Below, piece by piece: positions 5,300-46,782 of a stretch of DNA of 53,894 bases. Position numbers and translations under genes: made by a program. The notes below the pieces were generated by a model. The model was not told where the DNA came from and made no database searches. It saw nothing but the letters and a program-made list of their open reading frames with translations. This stretch comes from a virus, in the IMG/VR virus record IMGVR_UViG_3300050119_000052, positions 1 through 53,894 of that record; one strand, given 5' to 3'. Position 1 is the first letter of the stretch. Each line of letters starts with the position of its first letter.

Positions 5300-5367
5300 A
5301 CACTCAGCGGAGACGCCCGTCTGCATCCTGGGTGACGAAACAAATCTGGGGCATCTCCGCTGAGTGC
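5300..5367 (-). repeat. GNCACCCA stem-loop element, type C, copy 1
   Basis: Read on the minus strand this 68-base element is a 20-base arm (GCACTCAGCGGAGATGCCCC), then AGATTTGTTTC, GTCACCCA, GGATGCAGAC and a 19-base return arm. It obeys the same rule as the arrays at 22142-23985: unpaired C, A-N9-C, core, N9-C. The arms pair over about 17 of 19 positions. A TAGACT box (5375-5380 on the complementary strand) lies 7 bases upstream of the element in its own sense, as in the other two type C copies, and could be a -10 hexamer. It fills the gap between two tail genes. Confidence 0.85.
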
Positions 5368-5416
5368 CGCCCACAGTCTAACTGACTGAGCCGCGCAACC
5401 CAAAGGGGGACTTGGA

Positions 5417-14061: not shown

Positions 14062-16323
14062 GTGGCTGTTGCATTCGACGCGGTCGGCCCGTCAGCGGCG
14101 GGCACCGACACGTTCGTCTTTTCCGGCACGACCGGCTCACTCACGTGGTCGCACACTGTCGGCGCGGCCGGCACCAACCGCTGCTTGTTCGTCGCTGTCT
14201 CCTTCGGTAACGAGGGGGGCAGCGACGCCTCGACGGCGGTCACCGTCACCTATGCCGGTGTGTCCATGACGAGTATCGGCGTGGTCCACGCCGACAACTC
14301 CACGGTCGGTTTCGTTCAATTGTTCGGTCTCGTCGCGCCTGCGACCGGCGCGAACAACGTCGTCGTTTCCGTCACTGGCATTCCGACAGCGGCGACGGAC
14401 AACAACACGATCATCGGCGGGTCGGTCAGCTTCACTGGCGTCAACCAGACGACCGGGTGGGGCACAGGCGTCACCGCCTACGGCAACTCGGCCGCTCCCA
14501 GCGCCGCCGTCACGGGCGGCTCGACGTCGGAGATGGTCATCGACGCCGTCACCAGCGGTACCGGTGGCACCACCTCGACTCAGACGAACCGCTGGACGCT
14601 CAACGCGAACACCTATTCCGGGGCGGGTAACTCGGCTTCTTCGACAGCGGCCGGTAGCGCCTCGAGCGTCACCATGTCGTACTCGATCACCAGCGACTAC
14701 TGGGGGATCGTCGCGTGCCGCGTCGAAGCGGCCAGCGGCACGATCACGGCTACGGGTTCGATCACCTTGTCGGGTGCCGACGTCTGGGACGAGCCGGCCA
14801 GCGGCAGCCTCACACTCACGGGCGCGGCGTCCACTTCCGGGCGGGCGACCGCGTCGGGGGCACTGTCGCTCAGCGGTGCCGGCACCTGGAACGAGCCGGC
14901 CAGCGGTAGTTTGTCGCTCGCCGGTACAACGACGTGGAACGAACCCTCTAACGATTCGCTCTCCTTGTCCGGCGCCGCGTCCAGCGTCGCCCACGCGACC
15001 GCGTTAGGCAGCCTGTCCCTCACGGGTGCAGCGACCTGGTCGACCGGTTCGGCCGGATCCGTTACCTTCTCCGGCGCCGCATCGGGTGCAACGGAACCGA
15101 CCGCAGCCGGCGCGCTGACTCTCAGCGGCGCCGCCACGTGGGACGAACCCGCCAGCGGCTCACTGTCGCTATCCGCCGCATCGACCTGGTCGGAACCAGC
15201 GTCGGGGTCGCTCAGCCTGACCGGCGCCGTCAACAACGCCATCACCGCGGCCGGTGCACTGACCCTCACGGGTGCCGCCACCTGGTCCGAGCAGCCAACT
15301 GATTCGCTGTCTCTCACGGGGGCCGCGTCGGCGACTGGGAACCCCGCCGCCGCTGGCAGCCTGTCGCTGGCCGGTGCCGCTACGTGGAACGCCACCGCCG
15401 CCGGTTCCCTATCACTGTCGGGCGCGTCGACCTGGTCCGAGCAACCATCCGGCGCTATCACCCTGTCCGGTGCGGGCACCTGGACCGAACCCGCCAGCGG
15501 CGCTATCACGCTCACAGGTGCGACCACCTGGTCCGAGCAGCCATCCGGCAGTCTGACCTTCAGCGGGTCCGCATCGGGTAAGGCGGAACCGACCGCCGCC
15601 GGCAGCGTCACGCTGTCCGGGGACGTCAACAACGCCATCATCACCACCGGTTCGTTGTCCCTTACCGGCGCCGCATCGGCGAGCGGCGAACCGACCGGCA
15701 GCGGCTCAGTCACCCTCACCGGCTCATCGACGTGGGACGAACCGGCGAGCGGTGCGATCAGCCTGGCCGGTTCGGCCACGATCACCCAAACCACCACCGC
15801 GTCGGGTTCGGTCACACTGACCAGCACCGCGTCGGAGTTCGTGACCCCGTCGGCGGCTGGGTCGGTTGTTCTCTCCGGTGCCGCTCTCGCCTACACCACG
15901 ACCACCACCGCCGGGGCGATCACACTAACCGGGGTCGCAGCACCGTACGTTCCCGCAACCGCGTCCGGGTCGATAACCCTCACCGGGACGGCGACTGTCG
16001 CCTCGGCGACACTCACCAAGGTCACGGTCACCGGAGACTTCAACAACACCGCACTAAGCAACGCGATTGGCACGGTGGCGTTCACACCGTCGAGCCCCCT
16101 ACGCGCACCGGCAGCAGGGATATTCGTCGTCCCGTCCACGAAGATCATCCAACTGGCCAACGGCGCGTTCGCGGTGCAGCTGATAGCGACCGACAACCCG
16201 GGGTTGACCCCGCCTGGTTGGACGTATTACTGCGAGATCCGGGTCACCGGGTCACCCGTCAAGTACTTCACGTTCAGCCTGCCGTCCGCACCTTCACCGG
16301 TCGACCTTTCGACTCTGATCTAG
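14062..16323 (+). CDS. Adhesion protein with long tandem GSLSLSGAATW repeats
   Basis: The 753-residue product starts at GTG behind GAGAGGCGG. Residues 1-225 form a beta-sandwich-like head. Residues about 230-645 contain more than twenty degenerate repeats of 14-17 residues with the consensus SGSLSLSGAATWxEP, a pattern expected for a stacked beta-solenoid or fibre shaft. Residues 651-753 form a module (VTVTGDFNNT to STLI) that is clearly related to the first 100 residues of the next protein. There is no enzymatic motif. It is probably a tail fibre or host-binding shaft. Confidence 0.75.
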   Translation: MAVAFDAVGPSAAGTDTFVFSGTTGSLTWSHTVGAAGTNRCLFVAVSFGNEGGSDASTAVTVTYAGVSMTSIGVVHADNSTVGFVQLFGLVAPATGANNVVVSVTGIPTAATDNNTIIGGSVSFTGVNQTTGWGTGVTAYGNSAAPSAAVTGGSTSEMVIDAVTSGTGGTTSTQTNRWTLNANTYSGAGNSASSTAAGSASSVTMSYSITSDYWGIVACRVEAASGTITATGSITLSGADVWDEPASGSLTLTGAASTSGRATASGALSLSGAGTWNEPASGSLSLAGTTTWNEPSNDSLSLSGAASSVAHATALGSLSLTGAATWSTGSAGSVTFSGAASGATEPTAAGALTLSGAATWDEPASGSLSLSAASTWSEPASGSLSLTGAVNNAITAAGALTLTGAATWSEQPTDSLSLTGAASATGNPAAAGSLSLAGAATWNATAAGSLSLSGASTWSEQPSGAITLSGAGTWTEPASGAITLTGATTWSEQPSGSLTFSGSASGKAEPTAAGSVTLSGDVNNAIITTGSLSLTGAASASGEPTGSGSVTLTGSSTWDEPASGAISLAGSATITQTTTASGSVTLTSTASEFVTPSAAGSVVLSGAALAYTTTTTAGAITLTGVAAPYVPATASGSITLTGTATVASATLTKVTVTGDFNNTALSNAIGTVAFTPSSPLRAPAAGIFVVPSTKIIQLANGAFAVQLIATDNPGLTPPGWTYYCEIRVTGSPVKYFTFSLPSAPSPVDLSTLI

Positions 16324-22141: not shown

Positions 22142-22259
22142 CCCCACCACGCCAAGACGGCGACGTCACCCAGAGGTCCAGCGCGTGGTGGGGCCAAAAC
22201 TTCCAGCTTCCCCGGCAGCCAACCGGAACACGACACCCAACGGCGACTCGCTGCCGGGG
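22142..22259 (+). repeat. Stem-loop array I (two GNCACCCA elements)
   Basis: Element 1 (22143-22192) has type A arms, CCCACCACGCC and GCGTGGTGGG, and holds AAGACGGCGAC, GTCACCCA, GAGGTCCAGC. Element 2 (22210-22259) has type B arms, CCCCGGCAGCC and GCTGCCGGGG, and holds AACCGGAACAC, GACACCCA, ACGGCGACTC. Each is exactly 50 bases with a 10-11 bp perfect stem and a 30-base loop. The array is preceded by ATGACC and followed by GGGGGAACAC-ATG of the next gene. The whole stretch is also open in the frame of that gene, but low complexity and the repeat rule argue against coding. Confidence 0.9.
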
Positions 22260-22282
22260 ACCACTACTCAGCGGGGGAACAC

Positions 22283-22756
22283 ATGACCGGATTCAAAGAA
22301 ATCGTAGGCGACGTGCTGGAACACAGCGCCCGCAACGACCCCAACGAACTCGCAGAAGAGATCATGGGTCGGCTCACCCTGCCGCAGATCCGTGAAGGGC
22401 TAGCGCTCGCCCTCCCGGAGTACGTCCGACACGCGTTCCATCGCATCACCTACACCCCCGACCCTGACCCGTCTCGGCGAGTCAGGCAGGCGGCGGGGGC
22501 GTGGGATCGGCACAAGCAGCTCCTCGCTGTCCGCAAGCTGGGGTTGGAGGACTGGAAGCCGTTCGGGGAGTTCACCGCTGCGGATTGCACTGCGGCGGCG
22601 GAGTTGCGGCGGTTGAAGGCGTCGGAGTCGACGGCGCGAGCGGTCAAGTTCGACGCGACGGCTGAGGCTGTTGTGGCTGCGGGTGTCGCGTGTGTCGCGG
22701 ACCTGCCTGCTGATGTGCTTCTCGGTTTGTGGGGTAGCCATGACCTCGGCGAATAA
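22283..22756 (+). CDS. Early-region protein of unknown function between arrays I and II
   Basis: The 157-residue protein starts at ATG behind GGGGGAAC, directly after array I; the frame is open 53 codons further upstream through the array, which I exclude. The sequence is helical. The segment KLGLEDWKPFGEFTAADC followed by ELRRLKASESTARAVKFDATAEA resembles a common actinophage early hypothetical family. Its end overlaps an ATGACC that opens array II. No function is recognised. Confidence 0.7.
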   Translation: MTGFKEIVGDVLEHSARNDPNELAEEIMGRLTLPQIREGLALALPEYVRHAFHRITYTPDPDPSRRVRQAAGAWDRHKQLLAVRKLGLEDWKPFGEFTAADCTAAAELRRLKASESTARAVKFDATAEAVVAAGVACVADLPADVLLGLWGSHDLGE

Positions 22757-22761
22757 GACCT

Positions 22762-23048
22762 CCCCGGCAGCCAGACCGCCTACGTCACCCACAAGGGCAC
22801 CGCTGCCGGGGACCCAAACCACCGCCACGCCACGCTGGTCGCGTCACCCACATCTGGTTCGCGTGGCGGTCCTATTCGACCCCGGCAGCCAAAGCCGCGC
22901 CGTCACCCATGTCGTGGGCGCTGCCGGGGTCCATATTCCCCCACCACGCCAGAGGTCGACCGTCACCCAACGCCCACACGCGTGGTGGGTTCACACGTCC
23001 CCGGCAGCCAGCCCGCAGCCGTCACCCAGACGAGGCACGCTGCCGGGG
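22762..23048 (+). repeat. Stem-loop array II (five GNCACCCA elements, B-A-B-A-B)
   Basis: Elements are 22762-22811 (B), 22821-22870 (A), 22880-22929 (B), 22940-22989 (A) and 22999-23048 (B), each exactly 50 bases, spaced by 9, 9, 10 and 9 variable bases. Variable N9 pairs are GACCGCCTA/CAAGGGCAC, CGCTGGTCG/CATCTGGTT, AAGCCGCGC/TGTCGTGGG, GAGGTCGAC/ACGCCCACA and GCCCGCAGC/GACGAGGCA. All five cores are GTCACCCA. The A stem at 22821 has compensatory changes (ACCGCCACGC with GCGTGGCGGT), which supports base pairing. The interval is otherwise empty and ends 22 bases before the IS110-like gene. Confidence 0.95.
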
Positions 23049-23070
23049 ACCTCACTCATCGGGGGACCAC

Positions 23071-23805
23071 ATGACTGACCTCTACGACCCACTCCTCGGC
23101 AACCTCGCCGCCACAGTCGACGACCTCGAGATGGTTCGGAAAGCCGCCGAGAACCGTCTACGGCAGTTGACTAGGACCGGCGTCGACAAAGACGGCACCT
23201 CACGCGGCTTCGGACTACCCGAAGACCACCTATCCGTCCAAGCGGCCACAGTCATCGTCGACGGACTCAAGCGAGTCGAACACCAAGCGATCCTGCTGTT
23301 ACAGCGCCAACTCCGCACCCACCCACTACACCCGTGGATCAAGGCCCAAAACGGGCTGGGTGAGAAAACCGTCGCCCGACTGCTCGCCGCGATCCAGGAC
23401 CCGTACTGGAACGACCGACACGACCGCCCCCGCACCGTTGGTGAGCTGTTCAAGTTCTGCGGTGTCGCCGGCCCCGGTCAGCGTAAGCGGAAGGGTGAAC
23501 GGGTCACGTGGTCGCCTGAGGCGCGGATGCGATTGCACGTGATCATCGAGCCGATCGTGAAGAATCGGCGGTCGCCCTATCGGGCGGTTTACGACCAGGC
23601 GCGGGTCAAGTACGCGGAGAAGACGCACACGGAGGTGTGTGTGCGGTGCGGCCCGGCGGGTAAGCCTGCGCTGGTTGGGTCGCCGTGGCCGCCGGCTCAT
23701 CAGCATGCGGCCGCGATGCGCCTGGTGAAGCGTGCAGTTCTGCGCGGGCTGTGGGAAGAATCCCGCCGGTTGCATGGTGCCGACGAACTGAAGGTCGCAG
23801 CATGA
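23071..23805 (+). CDS. Stand-alone IS110 Transposase_20-like protein
   Basis: The 244-residue protein starts at ATG behind GGGGGACC, right after array II. Residues 89-110 form a helix-hairpin-helix (QNGLGEKTVARLLAAIQD), followed by RTVGELFKFCGVA, RKGERVTWSPEARMRL and KNRRSPYRAVYDQARVKYA, the order of the C-terminal Transposase_20 domain of IS110 transposases. The N-terminal 88 residues are helical and lack the DEDD RuvC-like domain, and the SG motif holding the catalytic serine is not seen. A CVRC-x15-HQH set could bind zinc. It ends KVAA. There are no IS ends. It may bind the neighbouring stem-loops; that role is inferred. Confidence 0.75.
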   Translation: MTDLYDPLLGNLAATVDDLEMVRKAAENRLRQLTRTGVDKDGTSRGFGLPEDHLSVQAATVIVDGLKRVEHQAILLLQRQLRTHPLHPWIKAQNGLGEKTVARLLAAIQDPYWNDRHDRPRTVGELFKFCGVAGPGQRKRKGERVTWSPEARMRLHVIIEPIVKNRRSPYRAVYDQARVKYAEKTHTEVCVRCGPAGKPALVGSPWPPAHQHAAAMRLVKRAVLRGLWEESRRLHGADELKVAA

Positions 23806-23816
23806 CCACTCAAACT

Positions 23817-23985
23817 CCCGCCACGCCAGCCATCTGCCGACACCCAGCTCTCTCGCGCGTGGCGGGGCTCAACTACCCCGGCAGCCATGGGCCTGGCGTC
23901 ACCCAAGCGATGACCGCTGCCGGGGTCCTAAACGAATCGTCGCGCCAAGTCCCAGCCGTCACCCATCAGAGGGCCGCCCGTCGGA
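23817..23985 (+). repeat. Stem-loop array III (three GNCACCCA elements, last degenerate)
   Basis: Element 8 (23817-23827 arm to 23866, type A with CCCGCCACGCC/GCGTGGCGGG) holds AGCCATCTGCC, GACACCCA, GCTCTCTCGC. Element 9 (23876-23925, type B) holds ATGGGCCTGGC, GTCACCCA, AGCGATGACC. Element 10 (23936-23985) keeps the loop rule (AAGTCCCAGCC, GTCACCCA, TCAGAGGGCC), but its arms pair at only 6 of 10 positions. The array opens with ATGACC overlapping the IS110-like stop and ends just before the next start. A 69-codon frame spans it with ATGA overlaps at both ends. Confidence 0.85.
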
Positions 23986-28556: not shown

Positions 28557-28882
28557 GAATCGCGGCGAACATCCTGGCCCAGCGTGCCGAAGACCTGCTT
28601 GTCATAGTCGATGACTCGACCGGCGAAGAAGTCTCAATGGATGCCGAGACAGCGGATCGGTTGGTTGTTGCGATCGGCTACCTGTTTCACGACATCACCC
28701 CAGTCGTCCCTAGCGTCGGTCTATCTAGGGATGTGAAAAACCCCTCCGAGCGGGTGGGCGTCGGCTCGCCGACAGTCGATGCGCCTGTCTCCCCGCTCGG
28801 AGGGGTTCAACCCGATGACGACTGGCGCACGTTCTACGCCGAGGACGACTGGTCGCCCGGCAGTTACGACGTGCCGCGATGA
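28553..28882 (+). CDS. Early protein with structured RNA/DNA segment inside
   Basis: The 109-residue product is not recognised. Residues 62-85 are encoded by a perfect 16-bp inverted repeat (28739-28807), which suggests that this part of the gene is constrained by nucleic-acid structure. It lies between annealing protein and exonuclease with four-base overlaps. Confidence 0.55.
   Translation: MRIAANILAQRAEDLLVIVDDSTGEEVSMDAETADRLVVAIGYLFHDITPVVPSVGLSRDVKNPSERVGVGSPTVDAPVSPLGGVQPDDDWRTFYAEDDWSPGSYDVPR
28739..28807 (+). repeat. Long perfect hairpin inside a gene
   Basis: AACCCCTCCGAGCGGG pairs perfectly with CCCGCTCGGAGGGGTT over 16 bp. The 37-base loop holds a second stem GTCGGC-TC-GCCGAC. 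It is preceded by five A. No GNCACCCA core fits the family spacing, so this is a separate structure. Confidence 0.8.
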
Positions 28883-44321: not shown

Positions 44322-44389
44322 GCACCCAGCGGAGAAGCCCGAAAGGGAAATGGGTGACGTTTTGGAGATGGGGCTTCCCCGCTGAGTGC
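44322..44389 (-). repeat. GNCACCCA stem-loop element, type C, copy 2
   Basis: Minus-strand order is GCACTCAGCGGGGAAGCCCC, ATCTCCAAAAC, GTCACCCA, TTTCCCTTTC and the return arm. The arms pair at 17 of 19 positions. A TAGACT box lies 7 bases upstream in its sense. The two N9 blocks (TCTCCAAAA, TTTCCCTTT) are AT-richer than those in the arrays. It occupies the whole portal-protease gap. Confidence 0.85.
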
Positions 44390-44419
44390 AGCCACAAGTC
44401 TACCTGAAAGGAGGTCGCC

Positions 44420-46539: not shown

Positions 46540-46548
46540 CGCAATGGA

Positions 46549-46616
46549 GCACCCAGCGGAGAAGCCCGCACACCGACTGGGTGCCGCTCATGACCTGGGG
46601 TCTCTCCGCTGAGTGC
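46549..46616 (-). repeat. GNCACCCA stem-loop element, type C, copy 3
   Basis: Minus-strand order is GCACTCAGCGGAGAGACCCC, AGGTCATGAGC, GGCACCCA, GTCGGTGTGC and the return arm. The core differs by one base (GG instead of GT). A TAGACT box lies 8 bases upstream in its sense. It sits between the two capsid genes. The 46617-46782 stretch adds a CCGGGC/GCCCGG hairpin and the ribosome site of the second capsid gene. Confidence 0.85.
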
Positions 46617-46782
46617 CGTCCCCGAGTCTAACCACTAGTCGTTTCACCCCACGCCGGGCCTGTGCCCGGTGCGCGCCGCTGCACCCACGGGTCGCAGCAC
46701 CCGCACCGGACGTGGCGCACCACCTGGGAAATCCAGCAAACCCCCAGAGCGCACGAATGCGCCCGACGCTAGGAGAACAGCA

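What the first reader, a model, noticed from the sequence alone, without database searches (positions are those of the whole stretch)
5300..5367. Third stem type of the same family on the minus strand beside tail genes
This intergenic hairpin, reverse-complemented, obeys the full rule (AGATTTGTTTC, GTCACCCA, GGATGCAGAC) with a longer 19-20-base stem. It lies 17 kb from the arrays. The shared loop grammar with an unrelated stem sequence shows that the loop, not the stem, is the conserved functional part.
Basis: seen in the sequence. Interest (0 to 1): 0.85.

Follow-up and report, generated by a model that had tools for sequence, protein, structure and literature searches.

The report
Stand-alone guide-RNA hairpins in an actinophage
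The hairpin is one guide-RNA unit of a phage-borne TIGR-Tas system, a recently described kind of RNA-guided DNA-binding system; unusually, this unit and two sisters sit alone among the late genes on the opposite strand, apparently with their own promoters.

Summary
The hairpin is real (fold z -5.8) and follows the loop rule exactly. It is one of 13 such loops in the window (10 plus, 3 minus strand; reversed-pattern control 2). Gene 23071-23805, between the arrays, encodes a nuclease-free TasA: sequence and model match TasH and TasR. The loop parses as box C (CCA), 9-nt spacer A, loop repeat CGTCACCCA, 9-nt spacer B, box D (CG): the stem-loop TIGR array of Faure et al. 2025 (PMC12045711). The kind is known.

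Not in the text I read: (1) three solitary opposite-strand units between late genes, each with TAGACT 7-8 nt before the stem, the only TAGACT sites in the window; (2) a relative with a whole tasA operon, opposite strand, at one of the same junctions; (3) a conserved partner protein (phrog_4604) upstream of tasA in 68 of 71 loci; (4) spacers hypervariable between near-identical mycobacteriophages.

Transcription is inferred, and I found no natural target.

The parts
5300..5367 (-). solitary tigRNA unit 1 (the finding): stem about 19 bp, box C CCA 5349-5347, spacer A 5346-5338, loop repeat 5337-5329, spacer B 5328-5320, box D 5319-5318
5375..5380 (-). TAGACT, proposed -10 box of unit 1; 7 nt before the stem
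   Evidence: inferred promoter, no -35 seen
44322..44389 (-). solitary tigRNA unit 2, between portal and protease genes (spacer A 44368-44360, loop repeat 44359-44351, spacer B 44350-44342)
44397..44402 (-). TAGACT, proposed -10 box of unit 2
46548..46617 (-). solitary tigRNA unit 3, between two capsid-type genes (spacer A 46595-46587, loop repeat CGGCACCCA 46586-46578, spacer B 46577-46569)
46625..46630 (-). TAGACT, proposed -10 box of unit 3
22143..22260 (+). array block 1: B-type unit (about 22143-22192) and A-type unit (about 22209-22260, loop repeat CGACACCCA)
22761..23049 (+). array block 2: five units, A-B-A-B-A stems, 59-60 nt period
23817..23976 (+). array block 3: B-type (about 23817-23866), A-type (about 23875-23926) and a strict loop at 23945-23976 without a clear stem
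23071..23805 (+). tasA: solo Nop-domain Tas protein, 244 aa, no nuclease domain
   Evidence: (phrog_4285)
22283..22756 (+). partner gene (phrog_4604, unknown function), upstream of tasA in 68 of 71 tasA loci

Best explanation
The hairpin is a single tigRNA gene of a stem-loop TIGR-TasA system. RNA polymerase starts on the minus strand at or just before the stem, from the TAGACT box (inferred). The short RNA folds into a hairpin whose loop carries two 9-nt guides, each anchored by box C (CCA) and box D (CG). A TasA dimer encoded 17 kb away binds it, one protomer per box C/D pair, and is led to an 18-bp DNA site, spacer A pairing with one strand and spacer B with the other (by analogy with TasR and TasH). 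With no nuclease, TasA most likely blocks or bends that DNA rather than cutting it. The three solitary units behave like guide-RNA morons: small self-contained cassettes between late genes, opposite in strand, so that they can be expressed apart from the phage's own arrays, for instance from the prophage. Shown: architecture, TasA identity, conservation pattern, placement. Inferred: transcription, RNP assembly in trans, target type, function.
For: TasA: phmmer to 9mty (TIGR-TasR) 8.5e-9 and to TasH 1.7e-8; the AF2 model (pLDDT 86) matches TasH 21kl Z 19.1 over 214 residues and TasR 9mty Z 18.8 over 187, bridge-RNA recombinases next at 13.0-13.4. Array adjacency: 64 of 71 tasA loci have at least one detected unit on the same strand within 1.5 kb (342 units). 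Strict loops picked without regard to a stem have one in 151 of 164 cases. Spacers sit at chance identity while stem and loop repeat are conserved, inside the window and, by eye, between 13 closely related mycobacteriophage loci. Solitary units: strict loops far from tasA on the other strand have a stem in 3 of 3 cases in the window and 0 of 6 in the other 59 loci then held. TAGACT is found 3 times in the window (6.4 expected), always 7-8 nt before these stems; M. smegmatis SigA prefers TANNNT as -10 (PMC6448022, passages read). Flanks beyond the box-hairpin cassette are not conserved.
Against: No RNA data. No -35 box and no terminator were found around unit 1. AGACT also occurs in 20 of 259 ordinary array linkers, though never as TAGACT, so the box may be a linker or processing motif. 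No natural target stood out: within the window; 262 and 323 spacer pairs against 1.1 and 2.6 Mb of phage and prophage DNA (at most one mismatch: expected geometry 5 and 7, swapped geometry 0 and 4, shuffled partners in the expected geometry 11 and 6); exact 18-mers in the phage collection for 6 units. The host of this phage is unknown.
Confidence: 0.62

Rival explanations
1. The solitary units are true tigRNA units but relics: leftovers of a former TIGR locus or of unit spread, no longer transcribed.
For: A relative phage (L073 = L067) carries a complete tasA operon on the opposite strand at the same portal/protease junction, so unit 2 could be what is left of one. The three share one stem type that is absent from the arrays.
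Against: Boxes, loop repeat, 9-nt spacing and stems (scores 17-23) are intact in 3 of 3; the TAGACT box is kept in 3 of 3 at 7-8 nt although the letters between box and stem differ. Relics should have decayed unevenly.
Confidence: 0.22
2. TAGACT is not a promoter but a linker or processing motif; the solitary units are made from longer antisense transcripts of the late region.
For: AGACT in 20 of 259 and AACT in 48 of 259 array linkers, well above background 0.27% and 2.5%.
Against: TAGACT in 0 of 259 linkers; in the array linkers the motif tends to abut the stem, here it lies 7-8 nt away, the distance of a -10 box from a start site; no evident minus-strand gene in the late region would supply a long transcript (my reading of the ORF list).
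Confidence: 0.2
3. Ordinary late-operon hairpins: terminators or attenuators read on the plus strand.
For: Placement right after stop codons of late genes.
Against: No T-run after the stem at unit 1; the 30-nt loop with exact grammar is far too long and too constrained for a terminator; the grammar is otherwise found next to tasA.
Confidence: 0.04
4. A DNA-level site (recombination hairpin, REP-like or attC-like mobile element, or a TasA binding site) rather than an RNA gene.
For: Both orientations occur; near-identical stems at three places suggest copying of a DNA cassette.
Against: Units of a stem-loop relative are made into processed RNAs (PMC12045711, section read); no flanking duplications are apparent in the alignment.
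Confidence: 0.06

Closest known systems
TIGR-Tas, stem-loop arrays with TasA (Faure et al. 2025, PMC12045711)
   Same: Solo Nop-domain Tas protein, palindromic units, two 8-12-nt spacers between box C and box D, loop repeat of constant length, sub-arrays around the gene.
   Different: Box D reads CG rather than UG; three units stand alone, 17-23 kb away, on the other strand, with a -10-like box; a partner protein family lies upstream of tasA. None of these is in the sections I read; figures and supplements were not seen.
TIGR-Tas dual-repeat arrays (TasR, TasH)
   Same: Edge and loop repeats with 9-nt spacers; one relative here, L085 (Gemmatimonadaceae MAG), has a 42-nt period with palindromic edge repeat CGCCCGCGCGGGCCA and loop repeat CGCCACCCA, a bridge between the two forms.
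   Different: Here longer stems and variable linkers separate the units; no nuclease.
IS110/IS621 recombinase and bridge RNA
   Same: The same RNA-binding fold (Z 13.3) and paired guide segments in RNA loops.
   Different: No DEDD domain, arrays of guides instead of one two-loop bridge RNA (the latter as described in PMC12045711).
Phage morons (recalled term)
   Same: Small extra units between late genes with their own promoter.
   Different: These would be guide-RNA genes rather than protein genes.

Membership tests
TIGR-Tas | Tas protein with a Nop domain | tested here: met
   best matches TasH and TasR by sequence and structure; Salicola phage CGphi29, the paper's TasH phage, also found by tblastn.
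TIGR-Tas | Array of units with two 8-12-nt variable spacers between box C and box D, next to the tas gene | tested here: met
   13 units, two 9-nt spacers at chance identity, CCA/CG boxes; array block 2 ends about 20 bases before tasA.
TIGR-Tas (stem-loop type) | Palindromic sequences in place of edge repeats, loop repeat of constant length | tested here: met
   12 of 13 units have a stem; the strict loop at 23945 has no clear stem.
TIGR-Tas (TasA) | No nuclease domain | tested here: met
   the 244-aa model aligns from residue 3-5 to TasH residue 65-67 onward, that is after the N-terminal domain; Pfam none.
TIGR-Tas | Units transcribed and processed into tigRNA bound by Tas | not testable with these tools
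   No RNA data.
TIGR-Tas | Spacers A and B pair with opposite strands of one DNA target | tested here: inconclusive
   Targets searched as A + reverse complement of B: no excess over controls, no exact match in phages for 6 units.
IS110 transposon | N-terminal DEDD catalytic domain | tested here: not met
   The 244-aa protein aligns only to residues 122-127 onward of the bridge-RNA recombinases.
CRISPR array | Identical 25-36-nt repeats with single spacers of like size | tested here: not met
   Units of 50-70 nt with split 9-nt spacers; no PADLOC match for the three window proteins tested, 22283, 23071 and 24008.
Rfam families, box C/D snoRNA included | Match to a covariance model at gathering score | tested here: not met
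   0 matches in the window.

The most novel reading that the evidence does not exclude
Phages carry single-guide 'guide-RNA morons': solitary promoter-driven tigRNA genes inserted between late genes on the opposite strand, expressed from the prophage, that reprogram a TasA plus phrog_4604 complex in trans against other DNA, with spacers that turn over far faster than the surrounding genome.
Probability: 0.4. Interest if true: 0.78.

Novelty: new variant of a known kind. Interest (0 to 1): 0.62.

Why it matters
The authors of TIGR-Tas state that natural targets, array growth and the role of nuclease-free TasA are unknown, partly because most loci are metagenomic. Here the system is placed in cultured, well-typed phages: 76 Mycobacterium phage records, most isolated on M. 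smegmatis mc2 155, with spacers that differ between phages whose stems and flanking genes are nearly identical. That makes function testable in the laboratory. The conserved partner protein gives a second component to assay, and the solitary cassettes, if transcribed, would show that guides can move singly and act in trans.

Tried and rejected
Self-targets: the best match of 13 spacer pairs in the window averages 3.6 mismatches, against 3.7 for shuffled partners. Targets in related loci, at most one mismatch: 262 pairs against 1.1 Mb gave 5 in the expected geometry, 0 in the swapped one, 6 and 3 in the two direct orders; 323 pairs against 2.6 Mb (redundant) gave 7 expected, 4 swapped, and with shuffled partners 11 and 6 expected, 3 and 4 swapped. 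Nothing above chance. One of the 7 (spacers of L064) lies in the tasA gene of L049/L050; not above chance. Exact 18-mers in the phage collection: none for the 3 solitary units and none for 3 mycobacteriophage units, while the built-in positive control was found in 70 records. Exact target of unit 1 in viral contigs: 6 hits, all in contigs of 38-47% GC, read as chance; unit 3: 0. Unit 2 and gapped targets were not scanned there.

Other dead ends: A-type stem pattern in viral contigs, 0; tasA relatives from a single sequence, 0 of 5 candidates; megablast of the window's first 25 kb to phages, none; Rfam, none; no fold match for the partner (best E 3.1). Rejected: terminator, CRISPR array, IS110 element (see the membership test).

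Limits of counts: the 71 tasA loci are 53 from IMG/VR, 11 from genomes, 6 named phages chosen by me out of 84 full-length hits, and the window. Some are the same phage twice (L034/L077, L061/L083, L019/L020 and several mycobacteriophages), so counts are of records, not of independent events. The unit detector found none in 7 of 71 loci, at least two of which (L031, L036) do carry arrays by eye. The six named phages were scanned for solitary units over most of their length (the last 13 kb of Peregrin left out): none far from tasA except one weak 8-pair match about 2 kb away in Rich.

Full report
WHAT IS THERE. On the minus strand of 5300-5367, between two tail-region genes, lies a hairpin with arms 5301-5318 and 5349-5366 and a 30-nt loop. 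It folds well below shuffles. The loop reads C-A-GATTTGTTT-CGTCACCCA-GGATGCAGA-C. A strict search for CCA-N9-CG-NNACCCA-N9-CG with at most one mismatch gives 13 places in the window, 10 plus and 3 minus, against 2 for the same pattern read backwards. The ten plus-strand copies form three blocks around the gene 23071-23805; the three minus-strand copies lie at 5300, 44322 and 46548. Twelve of the 13 have a stem. Three stem types occur: A (CCCCGGCAGCC) and B (CCACCACGCC) alternate in the arrays with a period of 59-60 nt in block 2, and C (CACTCAGCGGAGA-GCCCC) is found only in the three solitary copies.

WHAT THE GENE IS. Gene 23071-23805 hits phrog_4285 'transposase'. By sequence its only PDB relatives up to E 1 are 9mty and TasH. 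The AlphaFold model, built on 18 sequences, has pLDDT 86; Foldseek and VIA-align rank TasH and TasR complexes with tigRNA first (Z 16.9-19.1), then bridge-RNA recombinases IS621 and ISCro4 (13.0-13.4), then unrelated helical rows and Nop5, Nop56 and Prp31 (below 8). The alignment starts after the nuclease part of TasH. It is therefore a TasA, a solo Nop-domain protein.

WHAT THE HAIRPINS ARE. I read the abstract, the introduction and first results, and the sections on structure, stem-loop arrays, discussion and array methods of Faure et al. 2025 (PMC12045711). [quoted passage not shown] in TasR arrays box C is CCA and box D is UG. The window matches point by point, with box D reading CG.

COMPARATIVE EVIDENCE. 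Relatives of this TasA occur in 86 phage records (84 with at least 80% coverage; 76 Mycobacterium, 5 Gordonia, one each Rhodococcus, Arthrobacter and Microcystis, and 2 Salicola), in 53 IMG/VR loci and in 11 genome contigs. Six named phages that I picked all have hairpins of this grammar beside the gene. In 71 loci together (redundancy told in Tried and rejected), 64 have at least one detected unit on tasA's strand within 1.5 kb, 342 units in all. A test that does not use the stem: strict loops near tasA on its strand in the 59 loci other than the window then held number 164, of which 151 have a stem score of at least 8; random CCA-N27-CG places have one in 13 of 1783. In an alignment of 13 mycobacteriophage loci the coding flanks and stems are nearly identical while the spacer stretches differ wholesale, with some identical units shared between phages and one spacer A joined to three different spacers B. 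In the window, spacers A and B have 25% and 23% mean identity (chance 27%), loop repeat 95%, stems 88-95% within a stem type. Some stem changes are paired, for instance T-A to A-T in type A and A-T to G-C in type B (by eye).

THE THREE SOLITARY UNITS. Far from tasA and on the other strand, strict loops have stems in 3 of 3 cases in the window and 0 of 6 in the other 59 loci. With the looser detector over 71 loci and 0.93 Mb of far sequence, opposite-strand candidates with a stem score of 12 or more are these three and one in L028, 1.5 kb from its tasA. Aligning the three with flanks shows conservation mainly from TAGACT through the hairpin and a few bases beyond. TAGACT occurs three times in the whole window, both strands (6.4 expected), always 7-8 nt before GCACTC of these stems. 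TANNNT is the preferred -10 of the housekeeping sigma factor in M. smegmatis, its ANNNT core lying 6-13 nt upstream of start sites (PMC6448022, three passages read). No -35 and no terminator were found by consensus scan at unit 1. Against the promoter reading: array linkers are rich in AGACT (20 of 259) and AACT (48 of 259), though TAGACT is never found there.

PLACEMENT. Read on the plus strand, each solitary unit follows within a few bases the stop codon of a late gene: tail gene (ends 5296), portal (ends 44314), capsid-type protein (ends 46539). Eight relatives of the portal were found (61-66% identity). In five (L069-L072, L076) another ATG follows the portal stop within about ten bases, in L074 within about twenty; L075 has a gap of about 100 bases without a unit; none of these seven has a detected unit. 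The eighth, L073, carries a whole tasA operon with its array on the opposite strand between portal and protease. The same junction thus holds an opposite-strand TIGR element in two phages.

A PARTNER PROTEIN. The gene before array block 2, 22283-22756, belongs to phrog_4604. A profile from six such proteins finds a homologue on tasA's upstream side, same strand, in 68 of 71 loci (the three misses are L057, L085, L086). The six seeds come from six of these loci, so the figure outside the seeds is 62 of 65, some of these near-copies of a seed. Among 397 genomes of the order of a tasA-bearing mycobacterium it is found in one, that genome itself. In phages, a mycobacteriophage homologue finds 76 records, 75 of Mycobacterium, close to the 76 Mycobacterium tasA records (not matched record by record). 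It is helical (pLDDT 85) with no PDB match. Faure et al. say that TasA lacks clear associations with other proteins, apart from an occasional ParB-like gene. I found no mention of such a partner in PMC12045711 as far as read; the other papers listed for TIGR-Tas, tigRNA and related terms were seen as search listings only, and supplements were not seen.

TARGETS. From the reported 8-nt 3' overhang and the C-5 rule I derived the target as spacer A followed by the reverse complement of spacer B. No excess was found anywhere. The solitary units' spacers are 44% GC, the array's 67%, which may mean a different class of target; the sample is three units.

VERDICT. The family is known, so this is not a new kind of system. 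The solitary opposite-strand cassettes and the partner protein are, as far as my reading goes, new features that make the biology of TasA testable in cultured phages. How the solitary unit works remains inferred.

Noticed in passing
window 22283-22756; 68 of 71 tasA loci: Conserved partner protein (phrog_4604) upstream of tasA, same strand; helical, no known fold.
   Followed up: partly
L085 1-1911: Gemmatimonadaceae MAG contig with a regular 42-nt TIGR array (palindromic edge repeat CGCCCGCGCGGGCCA, loop repeat CGCCACCCA), looking intermediate between dual-repeat and stem-loop arrays; L054 has a similar 42-nt block.
   Followed up: no
L030-L043, L012, L014, upstream of tasA: The second mycobacteriophage unit has a small inner hairpin in its loop repeat (CACGGCAACTCGCCGCCA), unlike the other units.
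   Followed up: no
L009 2791-3774 (Rich gp50): The annotated Rich tasA gene runs through tigRNA hairpins at its 5' end, so its start is probably called too far upstream.
   Followed up: no
window 28739-28807: Perfect 16-bp inverted repeat (AACCCCTCCGAGCGGG) with a 37-nt loop, not of the TIGR grammar.
   Followed up: no
window 35252, 36256, 36619: Three copies of a 43-nt repeat sharing a GGTNNCNGGTCAACCC-like core; may be a regulatory site (D12).
   Followed up: no
window 14724-15785: Dense tandem repeats (families D1, D2, D6, D7) inside a large tail-region ORF.
   Followed up: no
L088-L131: Only 9 of 44 mycobacteriophage loci with a 94-99% identical helicase gave detected units (at least two more, L097 and L131, belong to phages whose arrays the detector misses), so the TIGR locus seems to come and go between near relatives.
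   Followed up: partly
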